Below, one piece after another: positions 1,985 through 38,215 of a stretch of 64,000 nucleotides of DNA (positions are counted from its first letter, which is position 1; the number at the start of each line of letters is the position of its first letter). A program made the translations under genes and the position numbers. Source of the DNA: Parapedobacter luteus (GTDB lineage: Bacteria > Bacteroidota > Bacteroidia > Sphingobacteriales > Sphingobacteriaceae); NCBI RefSeq assembly GCF_900168055.1, contig NZ_FUYS01000001.1, positions 186,001-250,000 on the forward strand, read 5' to 3'. The notes under the pieces are model-generated. The model did not search any database and was not told where the DNA came from. It was given only the letters and a program-made list of their open reading frames with translations.

Positions 1985-2033
1985 TAAAGACGGGGTCATT
2001 AGCTAGGTGGACGCCAGCTTATCATACAGAACT

Positions 2034-4055: not shown

Positions 4056-5405
4056 ATGAAGCAAGATAATACATTCTTAAAAACCTTGGGCTTTATTTCA
4101 GTTGCGTCCTTATTGAACTTTTGCGCTTATGGGCAGTTGGCTGAAACCAAAGAACGGTATATTCCCCAAAAGGTTTACCGCGTACCCGAAGGCAATGACT
4201 ATAACGATGACAATAGCGAGTTTAGCTATAAGCGGATGATAGAGACCCCCAATTTTGCCGCCTTTTGGGCAAAAGAATACGGTGACGACCCCATGGCCAA
4301 CCCTGATTCGGCCAAACGATTCGATTTGGCGGCTGCGTTGGCGGAAGGTGAGCGGTTTTACAACTATTTTATCGACACCCTCAAGTTTGCCGACCGTGGA
4401 AAGTCATGGTCGGATAAATATAAAATACTGATATATGTGATTAGCAGCGAAGATGGTGGGGGGACTGCTTTTGGCGGCGGATCTGAACATGTCGGGATAT
4501 TCTGGGCGCCCCCGGCGCGGATCAATACATATCCCTATGGCACCTTTGCACACGAATTGGGACACTCTTTCCAGTTTCTGGTGAGGGCGGACGGCGCAAA
4601 CGGTGCGCATGGTTCGATGGCCGAGATGACGTCTCAATATATGCTATGGCAGGTGTACCCGGAGTGGATGACCTTTGAAAATTACCACTTGGTGAGTTTT
4701 ATGGAAAAAACACACTACGCGTTTTTGCATCCAACCAACATGTATCATTCGCCTTATGTGCTGGAATACTGGGCTGGAATACACGGGAAGGATATCGTAG
4801 CGAGGCTATGGCGTGAGTCAAATGAAGGCGAAGATGCCGTGATGACCTACAAACGGCTGACGGGAATTGGACAGCAAGCGTTTAATGATGAGTTATTCGA
4901 TGCTTACCGCCGGTTTATCACCTGGGATATGGACCGTATCCGGGAGGTTGCTTCTCCGTATGCTAATCAGCATCATACGTCATTGGTTGACGCGGGCGAT
5001 GGTTGGTACCGTATCGATAGCGTGAAATGTCCGCAGAACTATGGTTACAACGGTATCCAATTGGCGGTGCCTGAATCCGGGACAACCGTCAAACTTCGTT
5101 TCAAGGGATTGGCTGGAGCCAGCGGGTACAGCATGCACAATATCGATAAGGCGGGCTGGCGCTATGGATTCGTTGCCCACAAAGCGAATGGGGAGCGCGT
5201 ATATGGCAAGATCCGGACTGCTGCCGATGGTAAAGCGAAATTCAAGGTCCCGGATGAAACCAAGCACTTATGGCTCGTGGTCATGGGCGCACCTGAAGAG
5301 CATTGGTCAATACCGATGCGTCGAAGAGGACAACAGGGAGACGAACCCCCCAAGGAAGAACAGTGGCCTTACCAGATTAAATTAACAGGCACGACAGTAC
5401 GTTAA
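4056..5405 (+). CDS. DUF6055-type secreted putative zinc metallopeptidase
   Basis: 449 aa with an N-terminal signal peptide ending near AYGQ; Cys23 sits in a poor lipobox, so secretion is more likely than lipidation. The core contains HELGH at residues 166-170, followed by a conserved AEMTSQY segment whose Glu190 could be the third zinc ligand of a gluzincin-like site. The C-terminal part (about 320-445) looks like a beta-sandwich and ends in a QWPYQIKLT stretch shared with the protein at 16556. The family is known to me only as a domain of unknown function; peptidase activity is inferred from the motif. The gene lies 24 bases after GH97 and 11 bases before GH43, so it is probably cotranscribed. 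Together with its longer relative at 16556 it suggests the locus attacks a protein as well as its glycans. Confidence 0.78.
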   Translation: MKQDNTFLKTLGFISVASLLNFCAYGQLAETKERYIPQKVYRVPEGNDYNDDNSEFSYKRMIETPNFAAFWAKEYGDDPMANPDSAKRFDLAAALAEGERFYNYFIDTLKFADRGKSWSDKYKILIYVISSEDGGGTAFGGGSEHVGIFWAPPARINTYPYGTFAHELGHSFQFLVRADGANGAHGSMAEMTSQYMLWQVYPEWMTFENYHLVSFMEKTHYAFLHPTNMYHSPYVLEYWAGIHGKDIVARLWRESNEGEDAVMTYKRLTGIGQQAFNDELFDAYRRFITWDMDRIREVASPYANQHHTSLVDAGDGWYRIDSVKCPQNYGYNGIQLAVPESGTTVKLRFKGLAGASGYSMHNIDKAGWRYGFVAHKANGERVYGKIRTAADGKAKFKVPDETKHLWLVVMGAPEEHWSIPMRRRGQQGDEPPKEEQWPYQIKLTGTTVR

Positions 5406-5416
5406 CATTTAAAGAA

Positions 5417-8400
5417 ATGTACAGAGATTGCTCCCTTCTTTTAAGTGTCTTTTTGAGGTTTTTTTGCTTTAATGTGTTCTTGTCAAGTGCAAATGGCCAG
5501 GCACTGGCTCCGCACGAGCGGCCAAGCATGGGCAATCCCATCATACCGGGTTACTTTGCCGACCCAACGGTACGGAAGATCGGAGATACCTATTATATCT
5601 ATGCCACGACGGACGGTAATGGCTGGGGCGCGGGGCCTTCGCAAGTGTGGACCTCCAAGGACTTCGTCAACTGGACCATCCAGCCCATGAACTGGCCCAA
5701 TACGCATTGGTATTGGGCACCCGAGATGACCCCAGGTTACGATGGCCGGTATTACCTGTATTACAGCCAGCCTGTGCAGCTTTATGGGGCGGTTTCCGAC
5801 AGTCCGGTGGGTCCTTGGTCTCCTTTGCAGCCGGAAGGGGAAGCCCTCGTTCCGAACTACAAAATTCCCGGCGTGATTACGCTTGATGGGCAGGCATTCC
5901 GTGACGACGACGGCAAGATATACCTATATTGGGGGACGTGGGGCATCTATCCCGACCATGGGTGCGCTGTCGGATTGCTGAACCCCGATATGAAGACCTT
6001 TGCGGATATCAAGCTGATCCCCAACACCGATGCAACGGACTTTTTTGAGGCTCCTTTTGTTTTTAAGCGCAAAGGCATTTATTATTTCATGTATTCTTCC
6101 GGACGGTGCGAGGACGATACCTATCGGGTACAGTATGCGATGAGCAAGCATGGGCCTATGGGCCCGTTTGTGTATCCGGAAGCGCATAATCCGGTACTCT
6201 CCACCAATAGCGATGGCACCGTGCACGGCCCTGGACATCACAGCATCCTTCAGGAAGGCGACCAATACTACATCATTTACCATCGGCATAATAATCCCCA
6301 TTCGGGTGGGGGATTCCACCGGCAGGTAGCCGCTGACCGGATGGAATTTGACCATGAGGGCAACATCGTTAAGGTCGTGCCTACGCACGGTGGCGTTGGA
6401 TACCTCGGTGAAAATACCATTCCTTATAAAAACCTTGCGTTTGGCGCTAAGGTGACGGCTTCTTCGGCCTATAGCGAAGCTTTTAGCCCCCAGTTTGCGG
6501 TCGATGACAACAACGGCACGCTTTGGAAAGCGGCGGATAATCAGGCTTCTGCCTGGCTGCAGCTGGACCTCGGGGAGGTAAAGGCTGTGAGGACCATACA
6601 TACCCAGTTTGAATACGCTACCTGGTATTACGGGTATGTCATCGAGTACTCTGCCGATGGTGCCACTTGGCAGACCTTCTCCAACCGGCGGGACAACCGC
6701 CGCTGGGGTAGCCCCATGATTGACGAAGGCGATGTACGTGCCAGGTATCTCCGCATGACGATCGATCAGACACAAGTGCCCGGGATGTTTAAAGCCATTT
6801 GGAATATCAAGGTTTTTGCGGAAGCCGGTGTGGGCAGGCCCGTGCTGTCGGATGAACAGCCGCTTACTCCGCGGGATACCCCCGGGGGGCTGTTAATTGA
6901 TGTTGATGCGGCCAAGCTACCCTTGGGAAGTATGTTGACGAAGCTGCCCAACAACGGTAGCCTGGCTGGAGAATGGAATGCTGAGGGTGCACCGTATGTG
7001 GCCATGCTTGCTGGGAGACAGGCCGTCATCTTCGATGGTAAGACCGCTTTTCGTTCTTCATTTGCCGTACCAACGACTTTGTCTGGCAATAGCAGCCATA
7101 CGGTTTCCGCGTGGGTATTTAACCCTACTGTCGAGCGGCATGAGCCGCTGCTGGCTTGGACGCAAGGCGCGCAGGATCTCTCGCGCGGCATCGTGGGTTA
7201 TGGCCATGACCGCGGCAATGGGGCTGTCGTCCGCGGAGCATGGCCGGATGTTGCTTACCAAACGGTGCCCGAAGCTGGCCAATGGCACCATATCGCCGTC
7301 ACCTTCGATGGTTATATGGAGCGCTTGTATGTCGACGGTACGGAGGTCAATACGTCAAACAAAATGCTATTGATGAACGCTGCACGTGCATTTATGATGG
7401 GAAAGGCTTTCGGCGAATCTGATTATTTTTCGGGCGCGCTGTCCTCACTTAAGGTTTATGACCGGGCATTGTCGGCAGCCGAAGTGATCGCGGATTATCA
7501 ACACGAAAACACATCGAAGGCACTGGTGTGGTTGCGTGCCGACGAACTGGCGTTTGGTGCGGTGAGCCGTTGGGAAAACGAAGGTGTGCTCGGCGGCGAT
7601 TTACAAGTGGCCAGTGGAACGTTGAAAGCCAGCATAATCTGTGGACGAATAGCCGCGGCTGCCGAAAGACCAGTAACAATCCAAGCTGCGCCGGTTGCCG
7701 AAGCGTTCGGCCAAAAGCAAGATCAGGATGCGACGCTTATGGTGGATTTTTGTATCACGGGAAAAAAATCTGCGCTTTATGGAATTAGCGGGATTGGGCA
7801 CCAATTGAATATTGGACAGTGGGGACAGTTGGTTGTGATGCGCAAGGATGGCCTGGCGCATGTTTATGTGAATGACCAACCGGTAAAGGTGCAACAAGAC
7901 CAACTCAATCGGTATTTCGTCGACATAGAAACCGGTTTGTTTTCGCTGAACGATATGGCCGTAGCCTCGATCCGTGTATTCGAAGGGGCTTGGACGAATG
8001 AGCAACTGGCAGCAAACGGCTATCAGGAAATGCAGGTGGGCACATGCGCTTGGGGAGCGGCTGTATTTGAAGTGCCGCCGATGTTTATCAACGAAAATAC
8101 GGTATTCATGCGTGCCGAGGCGATAGATGGGGTGGGTATGCAATACCAGTTTGTGGATTCAATCGGGAATGTGTGTAGCGGATGGCTAGATCGGACGGAT
8201 TTTCTGGTGGTCTGCGATAACGCAGATAGGATACCCGCTTTCCAGGTTGTTGCCAAGGATCGGTATGGCTACGTGACGAAGCCAACTAACCCCATCCAGG
8301 CGGGTACCCGTGCCGTGGCAAGCCCCGCGGACTTTGCCGTGTCACACGATTTTCTTGATGACGGCGTAGTGGGCACCCATTGGGATGGCATTTCCGGAGA

Positions 8401-8956
8401 CCGGGATGCTTTTCAGACCGTAAGCAGCGGTGGGGGTGAGCTGCAGCTTTCGTCTGTTAATACCCAATGGAACGGAAGCCGCAGCACCGGGCCGTTTTTG
8501 TACCGCGAGGTGAGCGGTGATTTCGTAGCGCAGACCGAGTTGGACGACGTCAGTGGGCGGGACGAACGGCGTGGCAGTCCGAACGAAACCGGAATCATGC
8601 TTTCTTTTGAAGGTACCGATGGTCGCCAACACCTACTGCAGAGCAGTGTGATGACCGGTTGGAATGTCGGTAATCTCGTGACGGTCATTGATGGCCGGGG
8701 CCGTCGCCAGCAGAACAATGGCCGGGGCTGGAGTTTCCATCGCCACTTACAGCTACAGCGATTGGGCTCCACGATCTATCTGCGCAGCAGCGAAGATGGC
8801 CGGAATTGGCAGGAGTTGCCCGGTAGTCCATATCACATGGATAGCCTTGTAGGCAATAAGCCCGTGCATGTCGGCCTTTACCAAGTGACGAACGAAAATA
8901 AGCAGGGATACGGCACGTTTAAGTCGTTTACTGTATTCAAATCCCAAACCGATTAA
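5417..8956 (+). CDS. Multimodular GH43 family glycosidase (arabinofuranosidase/galactosidase type) with CBM32, LamG and DUF1349-like modules
   Basis: 1179 aa, secreted (signal peptide to about residue 28, ending in SSANGQ). The five-bladed GH43 propeller covers about residues 38-330 and has the expected three acidic residues: Asp49 (YFADPT, general base), Asp157 (TLDGQ, pKa modulator) and Glu211 (FFEAPF, general acid). An F5/8 type C (CBM32-like) module follows at about 335-470, a LamG/concanavalin-like module at about 490-690, a less clear beta-rich stretch at 700-960, and a DUF1349-like sandwich at about 965-1179. Such length is unusual for GH43; the extra modules probably bind the glycan. 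GH43 members hydrolyse arabinan, arabinoxylan, side-chain Araf or galactan, and the exact substrate cannot be read here. It is the last gene of the GH97-DUF6055-GH43 run. Confidence 0.9.
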   Translation: MYRDCSLLLSVFLRFFCFNVFLSSANGQALAPHERPSMGNPIIPGYFADPTVRKIGDTYYIYATTDGNGWGAGPSQVWTSKDFVNWTIQPMNWPNTHWYWAPEMTPGYDGRYYLYYSQPVQLYGAVSDSPVGPWSPLQPEGEALVPNYKIPGVITLDGQAFRDDDGKIYLYWGTWGIYPDHGCAVGLLNPDMKTFADIKLIPNTDATDFFEAPFVFKRKGIYYFMYSSGRCEDDTYRVQYAMSKHGPMGPFVYPEAHNPVLSTNSDGTVHGPGHHSILQEGDQYYIIYHRHNNPHSGGGFHRQVAADRMEFDHEGNIVKVVPTHGGVGYLGENTIPYKNLAFGAKVTASSAYSEAFSPQFAVDDNNGTLWKAADNQASAWLQLDLGEVKAVRTIHTQFEYATWYYGYVIEYSADGATWQTFSNRRDNRRWGSPMIDEGDVRARYLRMTIDQTQVPGMFKAIWNIKVFAEAGVGRPVLSDEQPLTPRDTPGGLLIDVDAAKLPLGSMLTKLPNNGSLAGEWNAEGAPYVAMLAGRQAVIFDGKTAFRSSFAVPTTLSGNSSHTVSAWVFNPTVERHEPLLAWTQGAQDLSRGIVGYGHDRGNGAVVRGAWPDVAYQTVPEAGQWHHIAVTFDGYMERLYVDGTEVNTSNKMLLMNAARAFMMGKAFGESDYFSGALSSLKVYDRALSAAEVIADYQHENTSKALVWLRADELAFGAVSRWENEGVLGGDLQVASGTLKASIICGRIAAAAERPVTIQAAPVAEAFGQKQDQDATLMVDFCITGKKSALYGISGIGHQLNIGQWGQLVVMRKDGLAHVYVNDQPVKVQQDQLNRYFVDIETGLFSLNDMAVASIRVFEGAWTNEQLAANGYQEMQVGTCAWGAAVFEVPPMFINENTVFMRAEAIDGVGMQYQFVDSIGNVCSGWLDRTDFLVVCDNADRIPAFQVVAKDRYGYVTKPTNPIQAGTRAVASPADFAVSHDFLDDGVVGTHWDGISGDRDAFQTVSSGGGELQLSSVNTQWNGSRSTGPFLYREVSGDFVAQTELDDVSGRDERRGSPNETGIMLSFEGTDGRQHLLQSSVMTGWNVGNLVTVIDGRGRRQQNNGRGWSFHRHLQLQRLGSTIYLRSSEDGRNWQELPGSPYHMDSLVGNKPVHVGLYQVTNENKQGYGTFKSFTVFKSQTD

Positions 8957-8990
8957 ATTTAAAGGTTTATTGGTTAATATCCGGCTGTTT

Positions 8991-9016
8991 TTGAATCCGG
9001 ATGCCACTTATATTTG
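8991..9016 (+). promoter_or_regulatory. Weak candidate promoter of the susC operon
   Basis: TATATTTG at 9009-9016 matches TAnnTTTG. The nearest TTG (8991-8993) is only 15 nt upstream, shorter than the usual 17-23, so this is tentative. It would give a leader of about 155 nt before susC. Confidence 0.3.
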
Positions 9017-9026
9017 AGAAGTAAAT

Positions 9027-9056
9027 AAACGTCAAAAAGACGTTTTTAATAACCAA
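9027..9056 (+). promoter_or_regulatory. Small hairpin and shared leader motif upstream of susC
   Basis: AAACGTC (9027-9033) pairs with GACGTTT (9039-9045), followed by T residues: a weak terminator- or attenuator-like hairpin. It overlaps TTTTAATAACCAA (9044-9056), a 13-base string also present at 27720-27732, just before the second susC gene. The rest of the 8957-9175 gap holds no gene. Confidence 0.35.
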
Positions 9057-9175
9057 TTTATAATCAATTCAATTGAAGGTGGTGCGAACCGTCATTAGTA
9101 ACGGTTGACGAACAATTTGCTTATCAACATTAAGTAATAGGTCTATGTTTTATTTATTTACTAAATCTGAAAGTT

Positions 9176-12100
9176 ATGAAAAGGCTGCATTTAACTAGGA
9201 TTCCATGCATGCTATTCATGTTGTGCTGTTACCTGTGCGGGGCGCGGGTTTATGCGCAGAATGTGACTGTCTCGGGCGTGGTGAAAGATCAACGGGGTAC
9301 GCTGTTGGCTGGGGTCACCGTCAAGGAAAAAGGAAGCCCGAATACGGTCGTGACGGCTGATAACGGGCGGTATACCATTACCGTCCGCGGGCCGGGAAGT
9401 ACCCTGGTCTTTTCGTACGTTGGATTCCATCCGTTGGAGCGCAGCGTATCCTCGGGTTCTTCAAGCGTCGATATCATCCTGGAAGAGGACGCGTCCAGTT
9501 TGGATGAGGTCGTCGTGGTCGGCTACCAGAATATGCAGCGGCGCAAGATGACAGGAGCCGTTTCAAGCGTCAGCGGGCGCGATTTCGAAAACACGCCATA
9601 CGCAACCTTTGACCAGATGCTTCAGGGCCGTGTGGCCGGTCTTACGGTATTGACCACGTCGGGCGAGCCGGGCACCAACAACGTGGTCAATATTCGGGGA
9701 TCGAGTAACCTTGGCCTTGCGGATAACCAGTTGCAGGCGCCGCTCTACGTCATCGATAATATTATTTATGATGTGGGCGATATCCAGGCCGCTTACGGGA
9801 ACGCCAGTCCACTGCAGGCGATTAACCCGAACGACATTGAATCTGTGGACATTCTCAAGGATGCGTCCGCCGCGTCAATCTACGGTGCCCGGGCGGCTAA
9901 CGGTGTGATTATTATAAAAACCAAACGGCCGCCCTTGGGGGTTCCGGAAGTACGGGTGTCTGCATACGGTGGCGTGTCCAGCAGGCCGGCGATGAAGCCG
10001 ATTATGGTGGGCGCGGCCGACAGGCGGATGAAAATGTCGTTGCTGTATGGCGGCGGCCAGTACGATTGGTTTTATACCGGTCAGATCCACCAGATGCTTA
10101 CGGACAGCTTAAATCCTTCATTTAATAATGCCACGGACTGGCAGGGACTGTTTTTGCAGTCGGCCCCCATTACCAACGTCAACGTGAGCATCGGGGCATC
10201 GATGGAGAAATTCCTGTACCGTATATCCGCCCAGCATTATTATGAGGAGGGGGTGATGATGGGATTCGCAAACCAAAGCCTTACCCCCCGGCTTTTGCTG
10301 CAGGTGAATCCCTTGGAAAACCTGCAGTTTGAAACGAATATCTTTGCGGGTTTTACAAAAGCCAAACACGGGTCGGGTGACGATCAGAAGTATCCGTTTA
10401 CCACCTGGGGTTTCCCGTCGTCTTTTTGGGAAATAGGGGAGCTGGACAGGCAGATTTATACGGGGCGCTATGACGGGCTGCTGGATGACGACCGTTCGAC
10501 CAGTATAAATGGTAATGTGGCCGGTACCGTCAAAAAATTGTTTGTGCCCGAACTTTCGCTGCGGAGCCAGTTTTCTTTTAATATTAACAACAATACCCGC
10601 GATTTATACCGTCCGGTTTTGCTGACAGGCAATTACAATACGGCGCAGAACTGGGTAAACCAAAACCGGCGGTGGGAGTGGGAGAGTTACCTGAATTATG
10701 CCAAGACCTTTGACAGCGGGCACACGGTGAGCGGGGTACTCGGTTACGGGATGGAGAAGAATGTGTCCAACAATAGCCAGTTGCTGGGCAGGAGTTTAAA
10801 TAACGAAGCCATCAAAACGATTTCGGGCATCGGATCCGGATCAAATCTCTACGGGCGGTCATTGATTGCCGAGCGCGCAAGGATGTCCGTTTTCGGCAGG
10901 TTCGGCTATGACTATAAAAACCGTTACCTGATATCAGCCAGTTACCGTATGGACGCATCATCCCGGTACAGTGCCGACAACCGTTGGGGGATATTCCCGT
11001 CGATCTCAGCGGGTTGGGCAGTCAGCGAGGAAGATTTCTTCAAAGACCTCGGCGACTTTATTACCTTCCTGAAAATCAGGGGCAGTTACGGTATTACCGG
11101 GCGTGACCCGGGGTCGGAATACGCGCATTACACCATGCTTACTTATGATGGTACCTATACCGGTTCTGTGTTGGACAACGGTGTAGACGGATGGCAGCAG
11201 GGACAGCTGGGGCTCCCGGCAGTCCCAAACCAAACGACGTATAACGGTACCCGGGTGGCGTACGCAAACTACGGCGCCGCGGCCACATCGTCTACCATCA
11301 AATGGGAAAGCTCTCCGCAAATGAATATCGGAGTCGACCTCAATATGTTAAATGACCGTATTGAAGTAAATGCCGATTTTTATGTGCGGAATTCAACCAA
11401 TCTCGTATATGGACTGCAGATGCCCCTGACTTCCGGATACGCCACCATCGAGAACAATTACATCGATATCCGTAACTCGGGTGTGGAGCTGACCGTCAAC
11501 TCACGGAACATGTCGCCCCATTCCGCATTCCAATGGAGTACCAATTTTAATATCTCCTATAACCGGAATTTTGTCACCAAACTGCCTGATGGGGGCCGGG
11601 AAATCAAAGTGGGCCCAGCTTGGATGGAACGGGCGCTGAACGTGGGGCAACCTTTATTTCCGTTCAAAGTTTGGAAAGTGGATGGCGTTTACTCCACGGA
11701 TGGGGATGTGCCTGTGAACCCACTGACGGGAGATCGCATCAGGCATGGGTCCACTACGGGCACCCAGTATCAGGCCGGTGATCCGAGGCGGCTCGACATG
11801 AACGGCGATTACGTTATTGACGATAATGATAAAGTAGACATGGGCGACCCCAACCCTGACATCGTCGGCGGTATGACGCATACGTTTTCCTATAAAAATT
11901 GGTCACTTTCGGCATTGACGACGTTCGTTTTCGGACGCACGCTATGGAATGGTTATCTTTCTGACCGATTGCAAGACGCCGGCTCCGCCACGCTGTACAG
12001 TACCTGGGGTACCAATTCTGCCATATCGGGCGATTTTCAGTTGACGGATTTTTGGATGCAGCCCGGAGATAATGCCCGATTCCCCTCCCTGTTTCGCAAC

Positions 12101-12376
12101 ACGGTGGATAACTGGCATATTGCCAACAGCACGTTTGTTGAAAATGCGAGTTTTATCCGGATAAAAAACGTGCGGCTGGGTTATAACGTGCCAACGAACG
12201 TTGCAAAGCGGCTGGGAATGCGATCGCTGCGGCTGTACGCCGTGTTAGACAATATCGCCATATTTTCCTGGTCTACCGTGCCCGATCCGGAAGCGGTGGA
12301 GCCCAACGGGTATTCAACGGGTAACGGCTACCCGATTCCGAAAAAGTGGACATTCGGTATAGATTTTAATCTTTAA
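9176..12376 (+). CDS. SusC/RagA family TonB-linked outer membrane protein
   Basis: 1066 aa outer membrane transporter. It starts with a signal peptide (to YAQ at about residue 28), then a CarboxypepD_reg-like beta-sandwich (about 30-110), the SusC linker (DEVVVVGYQ), a plug domain with the NIRG, PLYVID and YGARAANGVIIIKT motifs, and a C-terminal TonB-dependent barrel ending in a Phe-rich strand (KKWTFGIDFNL). With its SusD partner it would import oligosaccharides, or glycopeptides, released at the cell surface. The stop codon overlaps the SusD start by one base. No SusR, HTCS or anti-sigma gene is seen next to it, so the regulator may lie outside the window. Confidence 0.96.
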   Translation: MKRLHLTRIPCMLFMLCCYLCGARVYAQNVTVSGVVKDQRGTLLAGVTVKEKGSPNTVVTADNGRYTITVRGPGSTLVFSYVGFHPLERSVSSGSSSVDIILEEDASSLDEVVVVGYQNMQRRKMTGAVSSVSGRDFENTPYATFDQMLQGRVAGLTVLTTSGEPGTNNVVNIRGSSNLGLADNQLQAPLYVIDNIIYDVGDIQAAYGNASPLQAINPNDIESVDILKDASAASIYGARAANGVIIIKTKRPPLGVPEVRVSAYGGVSSRPAMKPIMVGAADRRMKMSLLYGGGQYDWFYTGQIHQMLTDSLNPSFNNATDWQGLFLQSAPITNVNVSIGASMEKFLYRISAQHYYEEGVMMGFANQSLTPRLLLQVNPLENLQFETNIFAGFTKAKHGSGDDQKYPFTTWGFPSSFWEIGELDRQIYTGRYDGLLDDDRSTSINGNVAGTVKKLFVPELSLRSQFSFNINNNTRDLYRPVLLTGNYNTAQNWVNQNRRWEWESYLNYAKTFDSGHTVSGVLGYGMEKNVSNNSQLLGRSLNNEAIKTISGIGSGSNLYGRSLIAERARMSVFGRFGYDYKNRYLISASYRMDASSRYSADNRWGIFPSISAGWAVSEEDFFKDLGDFITFLKIRGSYGITGRDPGSEYAHYTMLTYDGTYTGSVLDNGVDGWQQGQLGLPAVPNQTTYNGTRVAYANYGAAATSSTIKWESSPQMNIGVDLNMLNDRIEVNADFYVRNSTNLVYGLQMPLTSGYATIENNYIDIRNSGVELTVNSRNMSPHSAFQWSTNFNISYNRNFVTKLPDGGREIKVGPAWMERALNVGQPLFPFKVWKVDGVYSTDGDVPVNPLTGDRIRHGSTTGTQYQAGDPRRLDMNGDYVIDDNDKVDMGDPNPDIVGGMTHTFSYKNWSLSALTTFVFGRTLWNGYLSDRLQDAGSATLYSTWGTNSAISGDFQLTDFWMQPGDNARFPSLFRNTVDNWHIANSTFVENASFIRIKNVRLGYNVPTNVAKRLGMRSLRLYAVLDNIAIFSWSTVPDPEAVEPNGYSTGNGYPIPKKWTFGIDFNL

Positions 12377-13866
12377 TGGAAAACGTAATGAAAGCATTTA
12401 AATTGTGCAGTATGGCACTGCTGAATATGATGGTATTGTTGGTTTCTTCCTGTTCGGACTTTCTAGATCTGGAACCCAAAAGTGCCTTGACGGATGAAAA
12501 TTTTTGGACAACACAAGGCGACGTGGATGCAGCGGTGGCGGGGGGGTACGCATTGATCCGGGCGGCCTTCAACCGGGCGGATGGGCTGTCTTTTTATGCA
12601 TATGGAGACCTGCCTTCCGATGAAATCAGCGCGGCCAACGTCACTCCGTTCGGGCAGATCCTGAATGGCCAGTGGAACCTGTATGTCGCGCCGTCTGATG
12701 TGAACCACGCGATGTACCAGCTGCGTCGGTACGATAGGTTTTACCGTGTGGTAGACCATGCCAATCGCATTATTGAAAACCTCCAGAAAATGGACGTTGC
12801 CGTCTTTGACAGCCAGGCCCGCCGTGATTTCCTACTTGGCGAAGCTTACTTTATACGAGCCTTCACGTATTTCTACATGGGCCGTATATGGGGTGGGGTG
12901 CCGCTTGTTACCGAAGCGGTTGCGCCGCTGCATGCCGAAAACCATGCCGCCGCAAGACCGGAAGAAGTGCTGGCTCAAAGCCTAAGCGATCTGGAAAAGG
13001 CCAAAGCATTGCTCGCCTGGGAAAATGCGACGTCGGCTGATTTTGCGGTGAGGGCCAACAAAGGTGCCGCGTTTGCGTTGGAGGCCCACCTGCACGCATG
13101 GATGGGTGAATACGAAGGGGCGGCAGCAGCTGCCGATTCGGTGATCCAAAGCCAGCTCTATTACTATGTGTCGCGGGACAGCCTGGTATACCGAAATATC
13201 TTTAGGGGAAATTCTTCGGAAGGGATTTTTGAAATCTCCCAGAATACAGCTAACGAAGGAACGCGATCAGGTATCGGCGAGGCCACATTGGTGTCTCCGT
13301 ACAACCGTCGGACGGTACCGGTGCTGGTCGTCCCGCCTGCGCGGATAAGCAACCTTTTTGACAACCCTGATGACAAGCGGCTGAAGTTTATGTTTGATAC
13401 AACGATAAATAGCAGTTACGTGATTTGCAGCAAATACGCGAACCTGACATTCAGCGATGAAAGCAACAATGCGGTACCTGTTTACAAAAACAACACCGTG
13501 GTGTTCCGTTATTCCGATATCAAACTCCTTCGGGCGGAGGCGCTGGCCGCAACGGGCGATGGGGCCGCGGCCCGCGAGCTGCTCAATGAAGTACGTATGC
13601 AGGCCGGCTTGCCCGCATGGGACGGTTCGGGCTCGCTTGTTGAAGCCATTTTCGATGAACGTGCCCGCGAACTGTTTTTGGAGGGGCACAGGTACTATGA
13701 CATGGTGAGGCTTTACAAGTACTTCGGCATATTCCAATTTCCATCAGCTAAAATGACATCGGATCAATTTAACAGGGGAAAGTATTACTGGCCGTTTGAC
13801 CCAAGCTTGCTGAACCAAAATCCATTGCTGCGGCAGACACCTTACTGGGGTACAGTCAATTTATAA
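12376..13866 (+). CDS. SusD/RagB family nutrient-binding lipoprotein
   Basis: 496 aa; the ATG at 12376 overlaps the SusC stop, and an in-frame ATG at 12388 is an equally plausible start. The lipobox LVSSC puts the lipidated cysteine at residue 26. The sequence has the SusD-like N-terminal region with the FLDLEPKS opening typical of the family, TPR-like helices, and the C-terminal RagB/SusD region (ERARELFLEGHRYYDMVRL). It would sit as the lid of the SusC transporter and bind the glycan at the surface. A pair this tightly coupled usually recognises one substrate class, here presumably the one attacked by the flanking GH43, GH97 and GH127/146 enzymes. Confidence 0.95.
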   Translation: MENVMKAFKLCSMALLNMMVLLVSSCSDFLDLEPKSALTDENFWTTQGDVDAAVAGGYALIRAAFNRADGLSFYAYGDLPSDEISAANVTPFGQILNGQWNLYVAPSDVNHAMYQLRRYDRFYRVVDHANRIIENLQKMDVAVFDSQARRDFLLGEAYFIRAFTYFYMGRIWGGVPLVTEAVAPLHAENHAAARPEEVLAQSLSDLEKAKALLAWENATSADFAVRANKGAAFALEAHLHAWMGEYEGAAAAADSVIQSQLYYYVSRDSLVYRNIFRGNSSEGIFEISQNTANEGTRSGIGEATLVSPYNRRTVPVLVVPPARISNLFDNPDDKRLKFMFDTTINSSYVICSKYANLTFSDESNNAVPVYKNNTVVFRYSDIKLLRAEALAATGDGAAARELLNEVRMQAGLPAWDGSGSLVEAIFDERARELFLEGHRYYDMVRLYKYFGIFQFPSAKMTSDQFNRGKYYWPFDPSLLNQNPLLRQTPYWGTVNL

Positions 13867-13886
13867 ACAGATTAGAACGGATTGTT

Positions 13887-15038
13887 ATGAAAGTTATTTA
13901 TTTCCGCATAAAATCGGCAATCGTTGGTGCTGCCGTATTGCTCGGGTTTCTCGCGTGCGAAAAGGATGCCTACCTTACCGATGAGGGGCTGCACCAAGCT
14001 GATGTCAGCCTGAATACATACGATTACCTCGCAGCGCATCCGCATCATATGTTTGACAGCCTGCTGATGGTGATCGATCATTTTGGCCTCAAGGACGAAA
14101 TTAATAATGCACGGACCTTTTGGGCGCCATCCGACTATTCGGTGTCCCGTTATTACCAAGTGAAGCGCGATTCGGTGCTGAATGAAAATGAAAATGCCTC
14201 GTATTCGTTTGAAGAGTTTCTCCAGGAACTGCATGTCGACTCGGTGCGGGCTTATATCAATAGCGACGGCTCCCACTGGCTGGGCACAGCGGAAACATCG
14301 TATACGTATGTAGCGAATCCCGCGGGATCTACAGGCTTCGCCTATCACAAAATACTCCAACCCAAAGGGCAATGGACGTATCAGGATATCTATCTGCTGT
14401 ATTTTGTCAGAGTAAGAGGGGAGGCCGACCAAGTCGGTCCCGACGGTAATGTCAGGGTAGACCGCAATGACGTGCCGGATTTACACATTCTATGCCAGAC
14501 TTCCGGCATTAAAACCGCTTCGGGGACAACGCTGAACGTCCTGGCCAACACGCATACTTTCCTCCTTGATTTTGCATCGCTAACCGACACGGGTCCATTT
14601 ATCGAGGATTTGCCTGACGGTATACGGTTTACATACGATGTCTCATTCCGCCCGGCAAGCGGTTACGTCGGCACATCTGTTGTCGCCCCGGCTACTTATA
14701 TCGCTGAGGTCTTCAGGCTGCAAACGGAAGATCTGTCTACCTTGCTGGGGAATTCCATTGTCTTTTATGCGATTGAGCCGGATGGAAGTCTCAATAGCAA
14801 CAGCACGGCGAATGCTCCCGGCCATTGGTTCAACCGGGACGGTAAAGTGGTGGCTTGGGGTGATGAGGCGCGTATATTCTCCGAGTACAATGGCGACACC
14901 TTTACATTCAGCATTGGCCAGTATCCAGACAGGCTGGCTTCGGGCGACACGTACACCGTTAAGCAGGCTATGGTATATACCAACCGGAACAACCAGCAAA
15001 TCAGGGCGGAGTTCGTGTTCAATATAACAATTAACTAA
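13887..15038 (+). CDS. Lipoprotein with fasciclin-like domain and C-terminal DUF4859 module
   Basis: 383 aa. LLGFLAC gives a lipidated Cys24. The middle resembles a FAS1 (fasciclin) domain: TFWAPSDYSV near residue 73 corresponds to the FAS1 FAPTD box, and the stretch from CQTSGIKT to LANTHTFLL matches the H2 region. The last 135 residues form a DUF4859-type module with GHWF and FSEYNGDTFTFSIGQYPD; nearly the same module closes the next two proteins. FAS1 domains act in adhesion, and the position after SusD is where SusE/F-like surface glycan-binding proteins occur. A surface binding role is therefore likely, but no substrate can be named. The gene starts 20 bases after susD and is cotranscribed. 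Confidence 0.82.
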   Translation: MKVIYFRIKSAIVGAAVLLGFLACEKDAYLTDEGLHQADVSLNTYDYLAAHPHHMFDSLLMVIDHFGLKDEINNARTFWAPSDYSVSRYYQVKRDSVLNENENASYSFEEFLQELHVDSVRAYINSDGSHWLGTAETSYTYVANPAGSTGFAYHKILQPKGQWTYQDIYLLYFVRVRGEADQVGPDGNVRVDRNDVPDLHILCQTSGIKTASGTTLNVLANTHTFLLDFASLTDTGPFIEDLPDGIRFTYDVSFRPASGYVGTSVVAPATYIAEVFRLQTEDLSTLLGNSIVFYAIEPDGSLNSNSTANAPGHWFNRDGKVVAWGDEARIFSEYNGDTFTFSIGQYPDRLASGDTYTVKQAMVYTNRNNQQIRAEFVFNITIN

Positions 15039-15057
15039 CGGTTTTAATCTGATAAAG

Positions 15058-16446
15058 ATGAATTTGAAACATATATGGCGCTACGGGCTGGCCACGCTGG
15101 CCGTGGTGCAGGGCTGTAAGCCTGATCAAATTGGATTCCTGAATGAGCATCTCCGGTACAATATTGCTGAATTGCTGGTGACACAGGGAACATCGGTAAG
15201 TACACCCCCGCTGATTGCTAACGGGAGCTCCACACCGATGACCGTGGAACTGCTGGAAATCCGCAATAAGGAGACGGGAGCGGCGGAAACGGCCTTTCTG
15301 CAACCCCACGAGTATCACGTTTTCCTGGAACAGGTGGGTGCCGATGACACCACGCTGGAACAGTTGGAAGCGAAGATTGGGACAGTCACCGAGCCGGCCT
15401 TGACCGTGAATGAAATCGGCGGAAAGGTGGCCTTGACCCCGGCTACCGAATACGTACCCCCGGGATCCTATACGCTGGATTTAAAAGTAACCAACATTTC
15501 GGGAACAAAAATTTATCCGGAAGTAATGGATATTACGTTATTGCCGATAAAGCCGGATTCGGTATTCGCCTCGTCGGCCTCAACCAGTACGATGTCTGAC
15601 GAATCGGCGACTGCCGAATGGAGGGATTACTCGGTAACAACCGAATACCGGCAAACTGCTGAGAACCGGATTATTTACGTCTGGGAAGACCGTGATGGTG
15701 TCCGGTTCAACCCTAAGCAAGGAGAGGTGGTCCGTAGGGCCTCCCTCCCCAGTTTTGCCGATTGGTCGCCTTTTTTCCCGGAGGAGCTGACCGATACGGC
15801 CATCGTGTACGAGTATCCCTTCTTTAAGGGGATGGCTTATCCGCTCAAGAGCGTGGCGCGTGTGGGGTCAACCAATTACTCGTCCGGACCGGAATCCCAT
15901 TACCGGATTCCGGCATTGGACAACAGCATCGCCATGAACATAAACACGATGACAAACACCAGGTTTTACCTGCCAGGTACCCATATTGTCCGGTACAGGT
16001 TGAACACCGTACGGCGGGGGCTTCCTGCCACGACGATCACGCGGGACGTTACACTGCCCGAAGGTGCCGGATATGCGGCCACCGCTGTCCCTATGGATCC
16101 GGACGAGCTGGCAGGCCTATTCGGTATTTCAGCAACAGAAATAGCCAGCCTGATGAATACCCGGATCACTTTTTACGGATTATTGCCCGATGGGACGCTT
16201 AACCCGAACAGCACGGCGGCGGCACCCGGCCATTGGTTTGACGCGAGCGGAAATACCGTTGGCTGGGGTGACGATGCGCGGTTATTCAGCGAATTCAATA
16301 CATCGGCTTTAGTGTTTAATATAGGTCAGTTTCCGGACAGGAATTTCGCGGGAGATACGTTTACGGTTCGGCAGGCGATGATTTACAGGCCCGCTGGAGA
16401 AGACGCCGTCCGCGTGAATTTTGTGTTTAACATCACGATCCAATAA
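15058..16446 (+). CDS. Lipoprotein with DUF5007-like N-terminus and C-terminal DUF4859 module
   Basis: 462 aa. The start MNLKHIW leads to the lipobox VVQGC with Cys20. The N-terminal part (about 25-190) is beta-rich and resembles DUF5007/DUF1735-type domains of proteins encoded next to SusD, a moderate match made by eye. Residues about 195-325 show no family I recognise. The C-terminal 125 residues repeat the DUF4859-type module of its neighbours (NPNSTAAAPGHWF, then FSEFNTSALVFNIGQFPD). It lies 19 bases after the preceding gene. A surface glycan-binding or adhesion role is inferred from lipidation, modular build and position. Confidence 0.75.
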   Translation: MNLKHIWRYGLATLAVVQGCKPDQIGFLNEHLRYNIAELLVTQGTSVSTPPLIANGSSTPMTVELLEIRNKETGAAETAFLQPHEYHVFLEQVGADDTTLEQLEAKIGTVTEPALTVNEIGGKVALTPATEYVPPGSYTLDLKVTNISGTKIYPEVMDITLLPIKPDSVFASSASTSTMSDESATAEWRDYSVTTEYRQTAENRIIYVWEDRDGVRFNPKQGEVVRRASLPSFADWSPFFPEELTDTAIVYEYPFFKGMAYPLKSVARVGSTNYSSGPESHYRIPALDNSIAMNINTMTNTRFYLPGTHIVRYRLNTVRRGLPATTITRDVTLPEGAGYAATAVPMDPDELAGLFGISATEIASLMNTRITFYGLLPDGTLNPNSTAAAPGHWFDASGNTVGWGDDARLFSEFNTSALVFNIGQFPDRNFAGDTFTVRQAMIYRPAGEDAVRVNFVFNITIQ

Positions 16447-16483
16447 CGAAGGATAAGATGAACGTGCCGAGGTAAGTCCACCC

Positions 16484-16525
16484 ATGATGCGTTAGCGCGT
16501 AGTATGCGGCGTGCCAACGCATCAT
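16484..16525. other. Long inverted repeat between lipoprotein genes
   Basis: ATGATGCGTT (16484-16493) is the exact inverse of AACGCATCAT (16516-16525), and pairing continues inward through GCGCG/CGTGC with mismatches. There is no T run after it, so it may be an mRNA stabiliser or processing hairpin rather than a terminator. It sits in the only gap over 100 bases between susC and the downstream DUF6055 gene. Confidence 0.6.
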
Positions 16526-16555
16526 TTGTTAACTAACGACTAACTAACCACCTAC

Positions 16556-18406
16556 ATGATGAAAGCACCTGCATTAAAACTACGGCTTACAGTTTTAGTT
16601 GTCTTTATGACGCTTATTTTTGCTTCCTGTAAAAAAGGCGACTTAATCGGGGAAAGTCCCACAGCAGAAGAGACAACCGATACGCTGACCATATACAAAC
16701 CCAATGAATTTGCCAATATGGATTTCGAAGACAGCACCAGTACCTGGAGCTATCACCGCAGCAGGCAGTCGGCCCACTTCATTGTATTCTGGGGGGCTGG
16801 CTATGGTGCCAATGACCCGAATGACGCCGCCGTTCCGGCAACGCACCGTGTCGATATTGACGACCTCTTGGAGAAGGCTGAAGAGTACTACGCCTTAAAT
16901 GTTGATACGCTGAAATTCGCGGAACGCGGCATCGGCCAGTCTAACCTGGACCAATATAAAATGATGATTTTCCTGCACTACACCACCGAGTGGATGGCGT
17001 ATGGTGGCGGGTATGACGACGTCATCGGTGCCCTATGGATCAGTCCAGGCACAGCACAACCCGTAGGGGCGACCATCGCGCATGAAATCGGGCACAGTTT
17101 CCAATATCAGGTACGTTGTGATTTGGGTGCTGCCCACGGCTTCCGGTACGGATTTGGCGGCAATGGCGGCAACGGCTTCTGGGAGCAGACGGCTCAGTGG
17201 CAGGCACACCAGAGCTATCCCGACCAGAATTTTGGATCACATCATTTTTCGGTATACGCCGAAAACTATCACCGGCATCAGATCCACGAGTGGTACCGTT
17301 ATGCAAACTATTTCATTCACCACTATTGGGCTGATAAGCACGGATTGGACATCGTCGGCCGGATTTGGCGGGAGGCTATCCAACCGGAAGACCCAATACA
17401 AGCTTATAAACGCATTACCGGTATCACCGATGCGCAGCTGAATGACGAGATCTATGACATGGCCACGAAGTTTGCTACGTGGGATATTGGGGCATTACGC
17501 GATTTGGGTACAAATCATATTGGTGCGTTGACCTATAAATTTACGATGCTGAGCGACGGGACGCTGCGTGTCACCTATGATCGGACGCCCGGCACCACGG
17601 GCTACAATGTCATCCCGCTGGAGGTGCCCGCTGCCGGTACCGAGGTGTCCATTGCCTTTACCGGATTGATCAATGAGACGGGGTACAACCCCGTCGCCGA
17701 TCCTTCCCGTGCCGGCTGGCGGTATGGCTACGTTGCATTGCTGGAAAATGGTAGCCGCGTATATGGGGATATGCACAGCGCGGCCAGTGGGACGGCAGCG
17801 TTTACCGTCCCGTCCGGAACTGGGCGGCTGTTTTTCGTTGTAACCGGGGCTCCTGCCTCGTATGCGCCACATGCTTGGGACGAAGATGAGTCCAATGATG
17901 AACAGTGGCCGTACGAGATAAAAGTTACAAATACAGATGTCGTCGGATACTTGACGTTCGATGATGACGATGAGCCGGAAGATATCACCTTTACCTATAA
18001 TATCAGTTTTCCATATGACGCCCAAAATTATTCGGGGACAACCGTGAGTGTAGATCAAGGGCAGCTTGGTTTGGCATTTGTCCTCCAGCCAAGTGATATC
18101 GCTGCCCGGCTGTCCAGTGGAACGGTCACCTTCCATGCGGTAGAACCGACAGGCGTTTTAAATGCGACCACTACGGCAAACGGTTATGGGCATTGGTTTG
18201 GTGCGAGCGGCGATGTCGTCCCATGGGGTGTTGATGCCCGTGTGTTTTCAGAGTTTAATGAGTCGACCTTCGTGTTTACGATAGGACAGTATCCCGCACA
18301 GACGACGGCAGGTGCCACGTATACCATCAGACAGGCCCTGGTATATGAGTACGAGCCGGGGCGAACCGTTCAGGCGACTTTTGTCTTTAACGTGAACATC
18401 CAATAG
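16556..18406 (+). CDS. Lipoprotein: DUF6055-type putative zinc metallopeptidase fused to DUF4859 module
   Basis: 616 aa with lipobox IFASC (Cys25), so probably anchored at the surface. The DUF6055 core (about 55-470) is a clear relative of the protein at 4056: it has HEIGH at residues 176-180, a downstream FWEQTAQW motif whose Glu210 is a candidate third metal ligand, and the same LDIVGRIWRE and EQWPYEIKVT blocks. The last 135 residues are a DUF4859-type module, third in a row, which the 4056 protein lacks. I infer a tethered metallopeptidase carrying its own binding module, while the 4056 protein is the secreted form. Activity is unproven. A terminator follows directly. Confidence 0.8.
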   Translation: MMKAPALKLRLTVLVVFMTLIFASCKKGDLIGESPTAEETTDTLTIYKPNEFANMDFEDSTSTWSYHRSRQSAHFIVFWGAGYGANDPNDAAVPATHRVDIDDLLEKAEEYYALNVDTLKFAERGIGQSNLDQYKMMIFLHYTTEWMAYGGGYDDVIGALWISPGTAQPVGATIAHEIGHSFQYQVRCDLGAAHGFRYGFGGNGGNGFWEQTAQWQAHQSYPDQNFGSHHFSVYAENYHRHQIHEWYRYANYFIHHYWADKHGLDIVGRIWREAIQPEDPIQAYKRITGITDAQLNDEIYDMATKFATWDIGALRDLGTNHIGALTYKFTMLSDGTLRVTYDRTPGTTGYNVIPLEVPAAGTEVSIAFTGLINETGYNPVADPSRAGWRYGYVALLENGSRVYGDMHSAASGTAAFTVPSGTGRLFFVVTGAPASYAPHAWDEDESNDEQWPYEIKVTNTDVVGYLTFDDDDEPEDITFTYNISFPYDAQNYSGTTVSVDQGQLGLAFVLQPSDIAARLSSGTVTFHAVEPTGVLNATTTANGYGHWFGASGDVVPWGVDARVFSEFNESTFVFTIGQYPAQTTAGATYTIRQALVYEYEPGRTVQATFVFNVNIQ

Positions 18407-24558: not shown

Positions 24559-24605
24559 AGACGTAAATGCAGCGGATCCAGATTTCGTGCAGCAGGCTAA
24601 AATAC
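24528..24605. repeat. Second large inverted repeat, overlapping the DUF5695 stop
   Basis: GTATTTTAGTCTGCTGCA (24528-24545) pairs with 24588-24605 with a single G-T pair, again with a loop of about 42 nt. The right arm contains the stop codon and last codons of the - strand gene, and could act as a two-way transcription stop for the convergent genes. Confidence 0.75.
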
Positions 24606-37008: not shown

Positions 37009-37024
37009 ATAAAAGAAATAGATT

Positions 37025-38158: not shown

Positions 38159-38215
38159 TGGCGTATCCGCATGAGGTCGTCTTTTAATGTCAATAAATGT
38201 CAATCAAACAATAAA

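What the first reader, a model, noticed from the sequence alone, without database searches (positions are those of the whole stretch)
4056..18406. Two DUF6055 HExxH proteins in one glycan locus: one secreted, one lipid-anchored with a binding module
HELGH (166-170) with Glu190, and HEIGH (176-180) with Glu210, look like gluzincin sites, and surrounding blocks are shared. Only the second has a lipobox and a C-terminal DUF4859 module. The family lacks an assigned activity to my knowledge. A free/anchored pair suggests division of labour on a glycoprotein.
Basis: partly seen in the sequence, partly recalled or inferred. Interest (0 to 1): 0.62.

Follow-up and report, generated by a model that had tools for sequence, protein, structure and literature searches.

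The report
Extensin-digesting locus with twin peptidases
A bacterium of the phylum Bacteroidota carries a gene set that looks built to eat extensin, the sugar-coated hydroxyproline-rich protein of plant cell walls, using two long-separated versions of a zinc peptidase together with the sugar-cutting, proline-cutting and uptake proteins the job would need.

Summary
Both genes are full-length DUF6055 (PF19527). The family is not without an activity: its distant relatives, the Svx/AvrXca proteins, include Svx, an experimentally shown gluzincin peptidase that was shown in 2026 to cleave extensin. The surroundings fit extensin linkage by linkage: GH97 of alpha-galactosidase type (Ser-alpha-Gal), GH127/146 and GH43 (Hyp-arabinosides), DPP-like S9 and M1 peptidases, two SusC/D pairs, two DUF4859 lipoproteins. 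In relatives the same genes join hydroxyproline catabolism: Galbibacter has DUF6055, a 4-hydroxyproline epimerase operon, S9, GH127 and DUF5695 in one locus; two Labilibaculum species have hydroxyproline dehydratase, activase, GH97 and DUF6055 in one run. The two window copies belong to two old clades; bare versus DUF4859-bearing separates them better than free versus anchored. Most likely this is an extensin-utilisation locus with Svx-like glycopeptidases. No enzyme activity was tested here.

The parts
50..1924 (+). S9 / dipeptidyl-peptidase IV-like peptidase (its open frame, 763 aa in the genome, reaches before the window)
   Evidence: PF00930 E 6.5e-51, PF00326 E 1.8e-45; frame length
2007..4031 (+). 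GH97, retaining alpha-galactosidase type; expected to remove alpha-Gal from serine
   Evidence: PF10566; NF053844 720.7 bits, cut-off 800; best solved relatives 3a24/5e1q alpha-galactosidase E ~1e-167
4056..5405 (+). DUF6055-1: bare gluzincin-like peptidase, signal peptide without good lipobox; HELGH 166-170, Glu190
5417..8956 (+). GH43 with F5/8C and laminin-G modules; expected alpha-L-arabinofuranosidase (subfamily not assigned)
   Evidence: nearest solved 5msx
9176..12376 (+). SusC1 (TonB-dependent importer)
12376..13866 (+). SusD1
13887..15038 (+). Lipoprotein (by eye) with C-terminal DUF4859, likely surface glycan-binding protein
15058..16446 (+). Second lipoprotein (by eye) with C-terminal DUF4859, likely surface glycan-binding protein
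16556..18406 (+). DUF6055-2: predicted lipid-anchored gluzincin-like peptidase with C-terminal DUF4859; HEIGH 176-180, Glu210
18898..21963 (+). LamG-Big4-GH127/GH146 beta-L-arabinofuranosidase
   Evidence: PF07944 E 3.4e-75; best solved 5opj, 8k7y, 8k7x
22681..24366 (+). M1-type peptidase
   Evidence: 53-54% identical relatives in the DUF6055 loci L063, L065, L066
24597..27347 (-). DUF5695 protein with polysaccharide-lyase-like fold; recurrent partner
27748..30695 (+). SusC2, split into two overlapping ORFs; unsplit relatives next to DUF6055 in L033 and L034
30725..32329 (+). SusD2
34904..35788 (-). AraC-family regulator, possibly of the locus

Best explanation
This is an extensin-utilisation locus, and both DUF6055 proteins are Svx-like gluzincin glycopeptidases that cut arabinosylated, hydroxyproline-rich plant (or green-algal) wall protein. 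Proposed order: DUF4859 lipoproteins and the DUF4859 module of DUF6055-2 hold the arabinosylated rod at the cell surface, and DUF6055-2 cuts it into glycopeptides; SusC1/D1 and SusC2/D2 import these; GH43 takes the alpha-1,3-Araf cap, GH127/146 the beta-Araf chain and GH97 the alpha-Gal on serine; DUF6055-1, beside GH97, trims the freed or galactosyl-serine peptides; the S9 and M1 peptidases release Hyp-containing di- and amino-peptides, and Hyp enters the epimerase pathway coded elsewhere on the same contig. Shown here: families, motif conservation, gluzincin-like fold, gene linkage, two clades. Shown by others for a distant relative: Zn-dependent peptidase activity and extensin cleavage of Svx. 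Inferred: the substrate of the window proteins, DUF4859 as arabinoside binder, cellular place and order of each step.
For: Fold: model of DUF6055-2 pLDDT 93.1, pTM 0.85; HExxH on helix 172-190, Glu210 on helix 207-220; best structural match lugdulysin (M30) Z 16.6, then mostly M1 aminopeptidases Z about 8-12. Motif 85 of 85 rows, HExxH in 105 of 105 proteins. Homology to Svx: NF040510 E 9.7e-19 and 2.9e-20; relatives that are full DUF6055 proteins match the Svx profile through its C-terminal part, 154-213 bits. Linkage in 37 genomes (window's own included) within 15 kb of DUF6055, listed matches: GH127/146 39 of 150 (1.35 expected), GH97 10 of 150 (1.38; 9 within 5 kb, 0.53 expected), DPPIV_N 15 of 150 (1.30), DUF5695 10 of 34 (0.30); controls GH28 0 of 150 (1.38), GH2 2 of 157 (1.43). 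Hydroxyproline: L114 and L115 carry HypD (1192 and 1182 bits, cut-off 1100), an activase, GH97 and DUF6055 in one run; L046/L132 and L065/L133 carry a 4-hydroxyproline epimerase operon (606 and 598 bits, cut-off 376) beside DUF6055, with S9 and GH127; the window's genome has the four enzymes on the same contig about 107 kb upstream (epimerase 587 bits).
Against: No activity was tested. Window proteins score far below the Svx equivalog cut-off (67 and 73 against 625 bits), and the best-scoring stretch is the part after the HExxH, not the catalytic motif. They lack the beta-helix domain that Svx needs for extensin. A residue named in the Svx paper's sugar site (N171, four after the Glu) is Gln in 81 of 85 rows. 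Many DUF6055 loci show no partner within 10 kb: GH127 in 33 of 80, GH43 in 19, S9 in 16, GH97 in 3 (single-query search). The epimerase is near DUF6055 itself in only 2 of 36 cases at 15 kb (7 at 25 kb), and in the window's genome it is not in the locus. beta-Araf also occurs in arabinan, AGP and RG-II (PMC10850190). The GH43 subfamily is unassigned. DUF5695 looks most like a lyase that acts, as I recall, on arabinogalactan protein. The GH2 control has 2 genes within 5 kb (0.54 expected).
Confidence: 0.8

Rival explanations
1. The locus is for arabinogalactan proteins (also hydroxyproline-rich): DUF6055 cuts AGP backbones, and DUF5695 removes caps like the lyase it resembles.
For: DUF5695 model best match is polysaccharide lyase BACCELL_00875: Foldseek E 1.5e-23, Z 23.4 over 608 residues; it is linked to DUF6055 (10 of 34 within 15 kb). 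AGPs also carry hydroxyproline and beta-Araf. The window's GH43 has no assigned subfamily and could be a galactanase.
Against: Apart from that GH43 no galactanase-type family was seen in the window locus; several GH127/146 per locus with GH43 fit Hyp-arabinosides; GH97 of alpha-galactosidase type fits Ser-alpha-Gal; the one tested relative cuts extensin (PMC13164431; AGP was not among the substrates I saw tested).
Confidence: 0.1
2. An ordinary arabinan/pectin locus in which the DUF6055 proteins are glycan-binding or glycan-esterase-like partners and not peptidases.
For: The nearest solved GH127-like enzyme is 5opj, which I recall as the arabinan-acting GH146 enzyme BT0349 (its activity: PMC10850190 passage); GH43 occurs in 19 of 80 loci and a GH51-type cluster in 6 of 80.
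Against: GH28 pectinases 0 of 150 near DUF6055; S9, M1 and Xaa-Pro-type peptidases and hydroxyproline catabolism sit beside it in several genomes; catalytic motif invariant; gluzincin-like fold.
Confidence: 0.06
3. DUF6055 proteins are general secreted peptidases without glycan specificity that happen to lie in carbohydrate loci.
For: Svx without its second domain still digests azocasein but no longer extensin (PMC13164431); the bare clade has no binding module.
Against: Strong, specific gene company across genera; DUF4859 in 69 of 105 DUF6055 proteins and in SusCD-linked lipoproteins.
Confidence: 0.04

Closest known systems
Svx/AvrXca peptidases of plant-pathogenic bacteria (NF040510; Svx of Pectobacterium atrosepticum)
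   Same: Homologous peptidase region with HExxH and a downstream Glu; Svx is stopped by EDTA, about three-fold less active on mutation of either Glu, and degrades a carrot extensin-enriched fraction (PMC9266454 parts 1-2 of 7; PMC13164431 abstract, results and discussion).
   Different: Window proteins lack the C-terminal left-handed beta-helix domain; one has DUF4859 instead, the other nothing; Gln in place of the sugar-site Asn; they sit in a nutrient-uptake locus, not a virulence setting.
Hyp-arabinoside degradation of Bifidobacterium longum and Xanthomonas euvesicatoria (HypAA GH43, HypBA2 GH121, HypBA1 GH127/GH146)
   Same: GH43 and GH127/146 enzymes for Ara-Hyp chains (PMC6085000 part 1 of 5; PMC10850190 passages).
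   Different: Here with SusC/D import, peptidases, an alpha-galactosidase and, in relatives, hydroxyproline catabolism; no GH121 was recognised in the window locus by the Pfam scans.
In-silico HRGP degradation in Latescibacteria
   Same: GH127 proposed to act on extensin arabinose (PMC4454575 passages).
   Different: No DUF6055, no locus of this kind in the passages seen.
M60 glycopeptidases (ZmpB of Clostridium perfringens)
   Same: Gluzincin with binding modules acting on O-glycoprotein; top Foldseek hit 7js4, E 1.5e-6 but TM-score 0.23.
   Different: Different sequence family; mucin-type rather than arabinosylated substrate.
Lugdulysin, MEROPS M30
   Same: Best structural match of the peptidase domain, Z 16.6, rmsd 4.5, 273 aligned.
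   Different: 11% identity; its domains were not compared further.
MEROPS M106
   Same: A fungal M106 member is reported to carry DUF6055 (PMC11241649 passage).
   Different: MEROPS was not available here; that paper calls the family not properly described.

Membership tests
DUF6055 (PF19527) | score over the curated cut-off (27 bits), full length | tested here: met
   475 and 588 bits, profile 4-415 of 417
gluzincin metallopeptidase | HExxH and a downstream Glu on a following helix | tested here: met
   85 of 85 rows; helices 172-190 and 207-220 in the model
gluzincin metallopeptidase | gluzincin-like fold | tested here: met
   lugdulysin Z 16.6, mostly M1 aminopeptidases Z about 8-12 below it; DUF6055-2 modelled, DUF6055-1 by homology only
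gluzincin metallopeptidase | zinc binding and peptidase activity | not testable with these tools
   no assay; model coordinates not given
Svx/AvrXca (NF040510) | score over the equivalog cut-off of 625 bits | tested here: not met
   67.4 and 72.5 bits: a relative, not a member
Svx/AvrXca (NF040510) | C-terminal beta-helix (acyltransferase-like) domain | tested here: not met
   no such domain in the Pfam scans of the window proteins, which end at or soon after DUF6055 or in DUF4859; Svx profile matched through that region in relatives L009, L011, L013
polysaccharide utilisation locus | SusC/SusD pair with surface lipoproteins and glycoside hydrolases | tested here: met
polysaccharide utilisation locus | induction by its substrate | not testable with these tools
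   needs expression data
MEROPS M106 | match to the MEROPS family | not tested
   link rests on a passage of PMC11241649 only
extensin utilisation | an enzyme family for each extensin linkage (Ser-alpha-Gal, alpha-1,3-Araf, beta-Araf, peptide) | tested here: met
   GH97, GH43, GH127/146, DUF6055/S9/M1; family level only, activities not tested
extensin utilisation | genetic link to hydroxyproline catabolism | tested here: met
   in relatives L046/L132, L065/L133, L114, L115; in the window's genome on the same contig but about 107 kb away

The most novel reading that the evidence does not exclude
Bacteroidota own a dedicated extensin-eating pathway, from glycoprotein capture to hydroxyproline breakdown, spread over many genera and over herbivore-gut genomes. 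DUF6055 is its glycopeptidase family with two anciently separated partners, DUF4859 is a new arabinoside-binding module that replaces the beta-helix of Svx, and DUF5695 is a new lyase or hydrolase of the same pathway. Plant pathogens would then carry a relative of what is mainly a nutrient-gathering enzyme family.
Probability: 0.45. Interest if true: 0.8.

Novelty: new variant of a known kind. Interest (0 to 1): 0.7.

Why it matters
Extensin is a major structural protein of plant cell walls, and in the papers seen here its microbial breakdown is known only in pieces (arabinosidases in bifidobacteria and Xanthomonas, a few pathogen peptidases). The locus gives a complete, testable set of genes, proposes a substrate for three Pfam families of unknown function (DUF6055, DUF4859, DUF5695), and offers enzymes with which the Ser-Hyp4 glycan code could be cut step by step.

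Tried and rejected
PDB sequence search with the DUF6055 proteins gave nothing usable. Foldseek alone gave only weak matches, with long poor alignments and antibody-like hits to the beta-rich parts; the VIA second look made the gluzincin match clear. DUF4859 had no convincing solved relative: RNase T1 hits at E 0.04 and worse, taken as chance. PADLOC gave no hit for either protein. Strict free/anchored division was considered and dropped: a crude lipobox pattern is found in 46 of 69 DUF4859-bearing and 16 of 36 bare proteins. DUF6055-1 also matches the MXAN_6640 HExxH model weakly (29 bits, cut-off 140); not followed. Print searches bearing on DUF6055, Svx or a Bacteroidota extensin/HRGP locus. 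One search failed in practice, since 'susc' also matched 'susceptible'. Nothing describing such a locus was seen in these listings; only open-licence PMC papers are held, so this is no proof of absence. Absence of a family from the structure-match lists was not used as evidence.

Limits of the counts: the 36 genomes were picked by me from the 80 loci, mostly named isolates, and all hold DUF6055 by construction; with G000 they make 37, and the window's own locus is among the counted ones. Match lists end at 150 rows, so only listed matches were counted; genera are related and PUL genes cluster, so a uniform-placement expectation overstates the evidence. In one search only the GH2 matches on contigs that hold DUF6055 were typed in, with the per-genome totals. 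In one search a split epimerase match in G398 was counted once (36, not 37). In one search, 1 of 80 loci (L095) showed no DUF6055 by my ORF call, and several loci are cut short by contig ends. For the tree proteins of 380 aa or less, or of 150 bits or less, were left out.
Full report
What was reported and what is there. Both exist at exactly these borders as ORFs 4056-5405 (449 aa) and 16556-18406 (616 aa). Both match PF19527 over nearly its whole length (E 2.3e-142 and 1.7e-176) and are 37% identical over 423 columns. The second has a lipobox-like start and a C-terminal DUF4859 (E 1.1e-24); the first has neither. The window's genome holds one more, weak match below the cut-off in a 1057-aa frame. 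Strong DUF6055 is uncommon: in a phylum-wide draw 47 of 395 genomes pass the cut-off, but only 12 of these with more than 200 bits; the other 35 have matches under 43 bits.

Fold. AlphaFold2 on an alignment of 85 sequences gave pLDDT 93.1 and pTM 0.85 for the 616-aa protein. The HExxH lies on helix 172-190 and Glu210 on helix 207-220. Foldseek alone was weak: best row M60 ZmpB, E 1.5e-6, TM-score 0.23. The VIA second look gave lugdulysin (M30 gluzincin) Z 16.6, rmsd 4.5, 273 aligned, then mostly M1 aminopeptidases Z about 8-12. His176, Glu177, His180 and Glu210 are the same in 85 of 85 rows, and HExxH is present in 105 of 105 proteins examined. Coordinates were not given, so the metal site was not measured.

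The family has a known relative. NCBIfam's Svx/AvrXca model matches both proteins (E 9.7e-19 and 2.9e-20), far below its cut-off of 625 bits; there are two matched stretches in each and the best one lies after the HExxH. Proteins that are full DUF6055 matches and are also matched by the Svx profile from before the motif to near its C-terminal end bridge the gap (L009, L011, L013: 213, 156 and 154 bits). Svx of a potato pathogen is a gluzincin: EDTA abolishes its activity, zinc restores it, and mutation of either Glu lowers it about three-fold (PMC9266454, parts 1-2 of 7 read). In 2026 it was shown to degrade a carrot extensin-enriched fraction but not mucin or concanavalin A, and its beta-helix domain, which docking suggests reads the arabinose chains, is essential for this (PMC13164431; abstract, results and discussion read; the discussion also names two older pathogen proteases that attack extensin). 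A fungal DUF6055 protein is filed under MEROPS M106 (PMC11241649, passages). The window proteins are not Svx proteins: they miss the cut-off and the second domain, and they have Gln where the Svx paper places a sugar-site Asn (Gln in 81 of 85 rows, Asn in 4, three of which are the beta-helix type).

The neighbourhood. In order: S9/DPPIV-like peptidase, GH97, DUF6055-1, GH43, SusC1, SusD1, two DUF4859 lipoproteins, DUF6055-2-DUF4859, LamG-GH127/146, M1, DUF5695 (opposite strand), SusC2 (split), SusD2. GH97 is nearest to the solved retaining alpha-galactosidases 3a24/5e1q (E about 1e-167) and scores 720.7 bits against NF053844, cut-off 800. The aspartate that is Gly in the 5e1q construct is present in the window protein; that it is the nucleophile is recalled. 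GH127/146 is nearest to 5opj, then 8k7y/8k7x; the E-x-C and C-C zinc residues described for GH127/GH146 enzymes in PMC10850190 (passages) can be read in the two alignments shown. These are families used on Hyp-arabinosides by Bifidobacterium and Xanthomonas (PMC6085000, part 1 of 5; PMC10850190, passages). The GH43 subfamily was not assigned. The second SusC/D pair belongs with the first: its homologues stand in the DUF6055 loci L033, L034, L043, L045, L052 and L065. Sphingobacterium olei (L127) has nearly the same genes in a slightly different order and without the GH97: S9, GH127, GH43, DUF6055, SusC, SusD, two DUF4859 proteins, DUF6055-DUF4859.

Recurrence. Record titles name many genera and several herbivore-gut MAGs (yak, goat, sheep, buffalo, deer); other genera I recall as soil or marine. 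Within 10 kb, by single-query search: SusC in 53 of 80, DUF4859-type in 70, GH127 in 33, GH43 in 19, S9 in 16, GH97 in 3, M1 in 3. In 36 of these genomes plus the window's own, genes within 15 kb of a DUF6055 gene were counted among the listed matches: GH127/146 39 of 150 (1.35 expected if placed at random), GH97 10 of 150 (1.38; 9 within 5 kb, 0.53 expected), DPPIV_N 15 of 150 (1.30), DUF5695 10 of 34 (0.30). Controls: GH28 0 of 150 (1.38), GH2 2 of 157 (1.43; both within 5 kb, 0.54 expected). Of the nine non-window GH97 near DUF6055, eight are of the alpha-galactosidase type (695-891 bits, two over the cut-off) and one is not (288 bits); a further one from a contig without DUF6055 is also of that type (874 bits).

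Two old versions. The tree of 105 DUF6055 domains (quick method, SH-aLRT) has a fully bare clade of 18 rows (100) that holds window DUF6055-1, and a second part of 87 rows (69 with DUF4859, 18 without) that holds DUF6055-2. Most of these rows were found through a search seeded with DUF6055-2, so the balance of the two parts is not a census. Bare-clade members stand next to GH97 in L113, L114, L115, L117, L118 and L120 as in the window. 15 of 37 genomes hold two or more strong DUF6055 genes, one of which (in G410) is interrupted by a stop. Anchoring is not the dividing line: by a crude pattern 7 of the 18 bare-clade rows look like lipoproteins. DUF4859 is also fused to a GH127/146 enzyme (L118:1158-5174), so peptidase, arabinosidase and surface lipoproteins share one module, which suggests that it binds a common arabinosylated ligand.

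Hydroxyproline. The strongest independent support came from outside the window. In two Labilibaculum genomes (97% identical HypD, so one event) the run is trans-4-hydroxy-L-proline dehydratase (1192 and 1182 bits, cut-off 1100), an activase (330 bits in both, below cut-off 425), GH97, DUF6055. In Galbibacter (L046, L132) one locus holds SusC, a 534-aa ORF in the SusD position, DUF6055-DUF4859, AraC, a DHDPS-family protein, an aldehyde dehydrogenase, 4-hydroxyproline epimerase (606 bits, cut-off 376), a D-amino-acid-dehydrogenase-like protein, then S9 (62% identical to the window's), GH127 (82% in the catalytic part) and DUF5695; only the epimerase passes its curated cut-off, the other three enzymes are named by family. 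Salegentibacter (L065, L133) has the same operon (epimerase 598 bits) with DUF6055 beside it, plus S9, GH127 and a Xaa-Pro-type peptidase (196 bits, cut-off 465). Pustulibacterium (L134) has GH97, the operon, S9 and GH127 together, with DUF6055 on another contig. PF05544 genes (proline racemase / hydroxyproline epimerase) are in 34 of 37 genomes, against 1 of 14 control genomes; three of them were checked and all three are 4-hydroxyproline epimerases by NCBIfam. They lie within 15 kb of GH127 in 12 of 36 cases (0.69 expected), of DUF5695 in 8 of 36 (0.19), of DUF6055 in only 2 of 36 (0.31; 7 of 36 at 25 kb, 0.49), and of GH28 in 0 of 36. The window's genome has the same four enzymes in the same order with an AraC-type regulator (epimerase 587 bits, 74% identical to Galbibacter's) on the same contig about 107 kb upstream. 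HypD occurs in 9 of 37 genomes, not in the window's, and only the two Labilibaculum copies are in the DUF6055 run.

Mechanism. beta-L-Araf chains on hydroxyproline, alpha-Gal on serine and a Hyp-rich backbone together define extensins (PMC9266454, PMC6085000). Every linkage has a candidate enzyme here and the end product has a pathway. The likely order is capture and first cut at the surface by DUF6055-2, import, removal of arabinose and galactose, second cut by DUF6055-1, release of Hyp by S9/M1, and catabolism. Places and order are inferred. DUF5695 is unresolved: its model (pLDDT 76.3) matches the polysaccharide lyase BACCELL_00875 (Foldseek E 1.5e-23; Z 23.4 over 608 residues), an enzyme that I recall acts on arabinogalactan protein, so AGP as an additional or alternative target stays open.

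Verdict. It is a new variant of a known kind (a PUL). No description of such a locus was seen in the listings; one search was spoiled by a word match. HRGP breakdown by GH127 has been proposed in silico for Latescibacteria (PMC4454575, passages).

Noticed in passing
window 27748-30695: SusC2 is split into two overlapping ORFs (557 and 444 aa), while relatives in L033 and L034 are unsplit; either a real lesion or a sequencing error.
   Followed up: partly
window 24597-27347 (-): DUF5695: predicted N-terminal beta-sandwich plus helical barrel, closest to polysaccharide lyase BACCELL_00875; linked to DUF6055 and the PF05544 epimerase genes.
   Followed up: partly
L118:1158-5174: DUF4859 fused to a GH127/GH146 catalytic domain, the same module as in DUF6055-2 and the two window lipoproteins.
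   Followed up: partly
L085:11802-13115 and its cluster, present in 13 of 80 loci: A protein of about 438 aa follows DUF6055-DUF4859 in many of these loci; the one representative scanned matches CotH kinase. Its role in such a locus is unexplained.
   Followed up: no
L073:16891-17721 and its cluster, present in 11 of 80 loci: A protein of about 277 aa recurs in these loci; the one representative scanned has no Pfam match.
   Followed up: no
own genome C17:93577-93981; many places: Weak DUF6055-like matches around the HExxH region in frames of about 550 and 1050 aa are widespread in Bacteroidota and may be separate gluzincin families.
   Followed up: no
L121:8535-9485 (G410:C12): A DUF6055 gene with an in-frame TAG beside GH97 and S9, with M1 and a Xaa-Pro-type peptidase nearby; possibly decaying.
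   Followed up: no
window 36136-41728: Sugar isomerase-like, GFO/IDH oxidoreductase and a large ThuA-DUF7133-HEAT-plastocyanin protein, apparently a different gene set.
   Followed up: no
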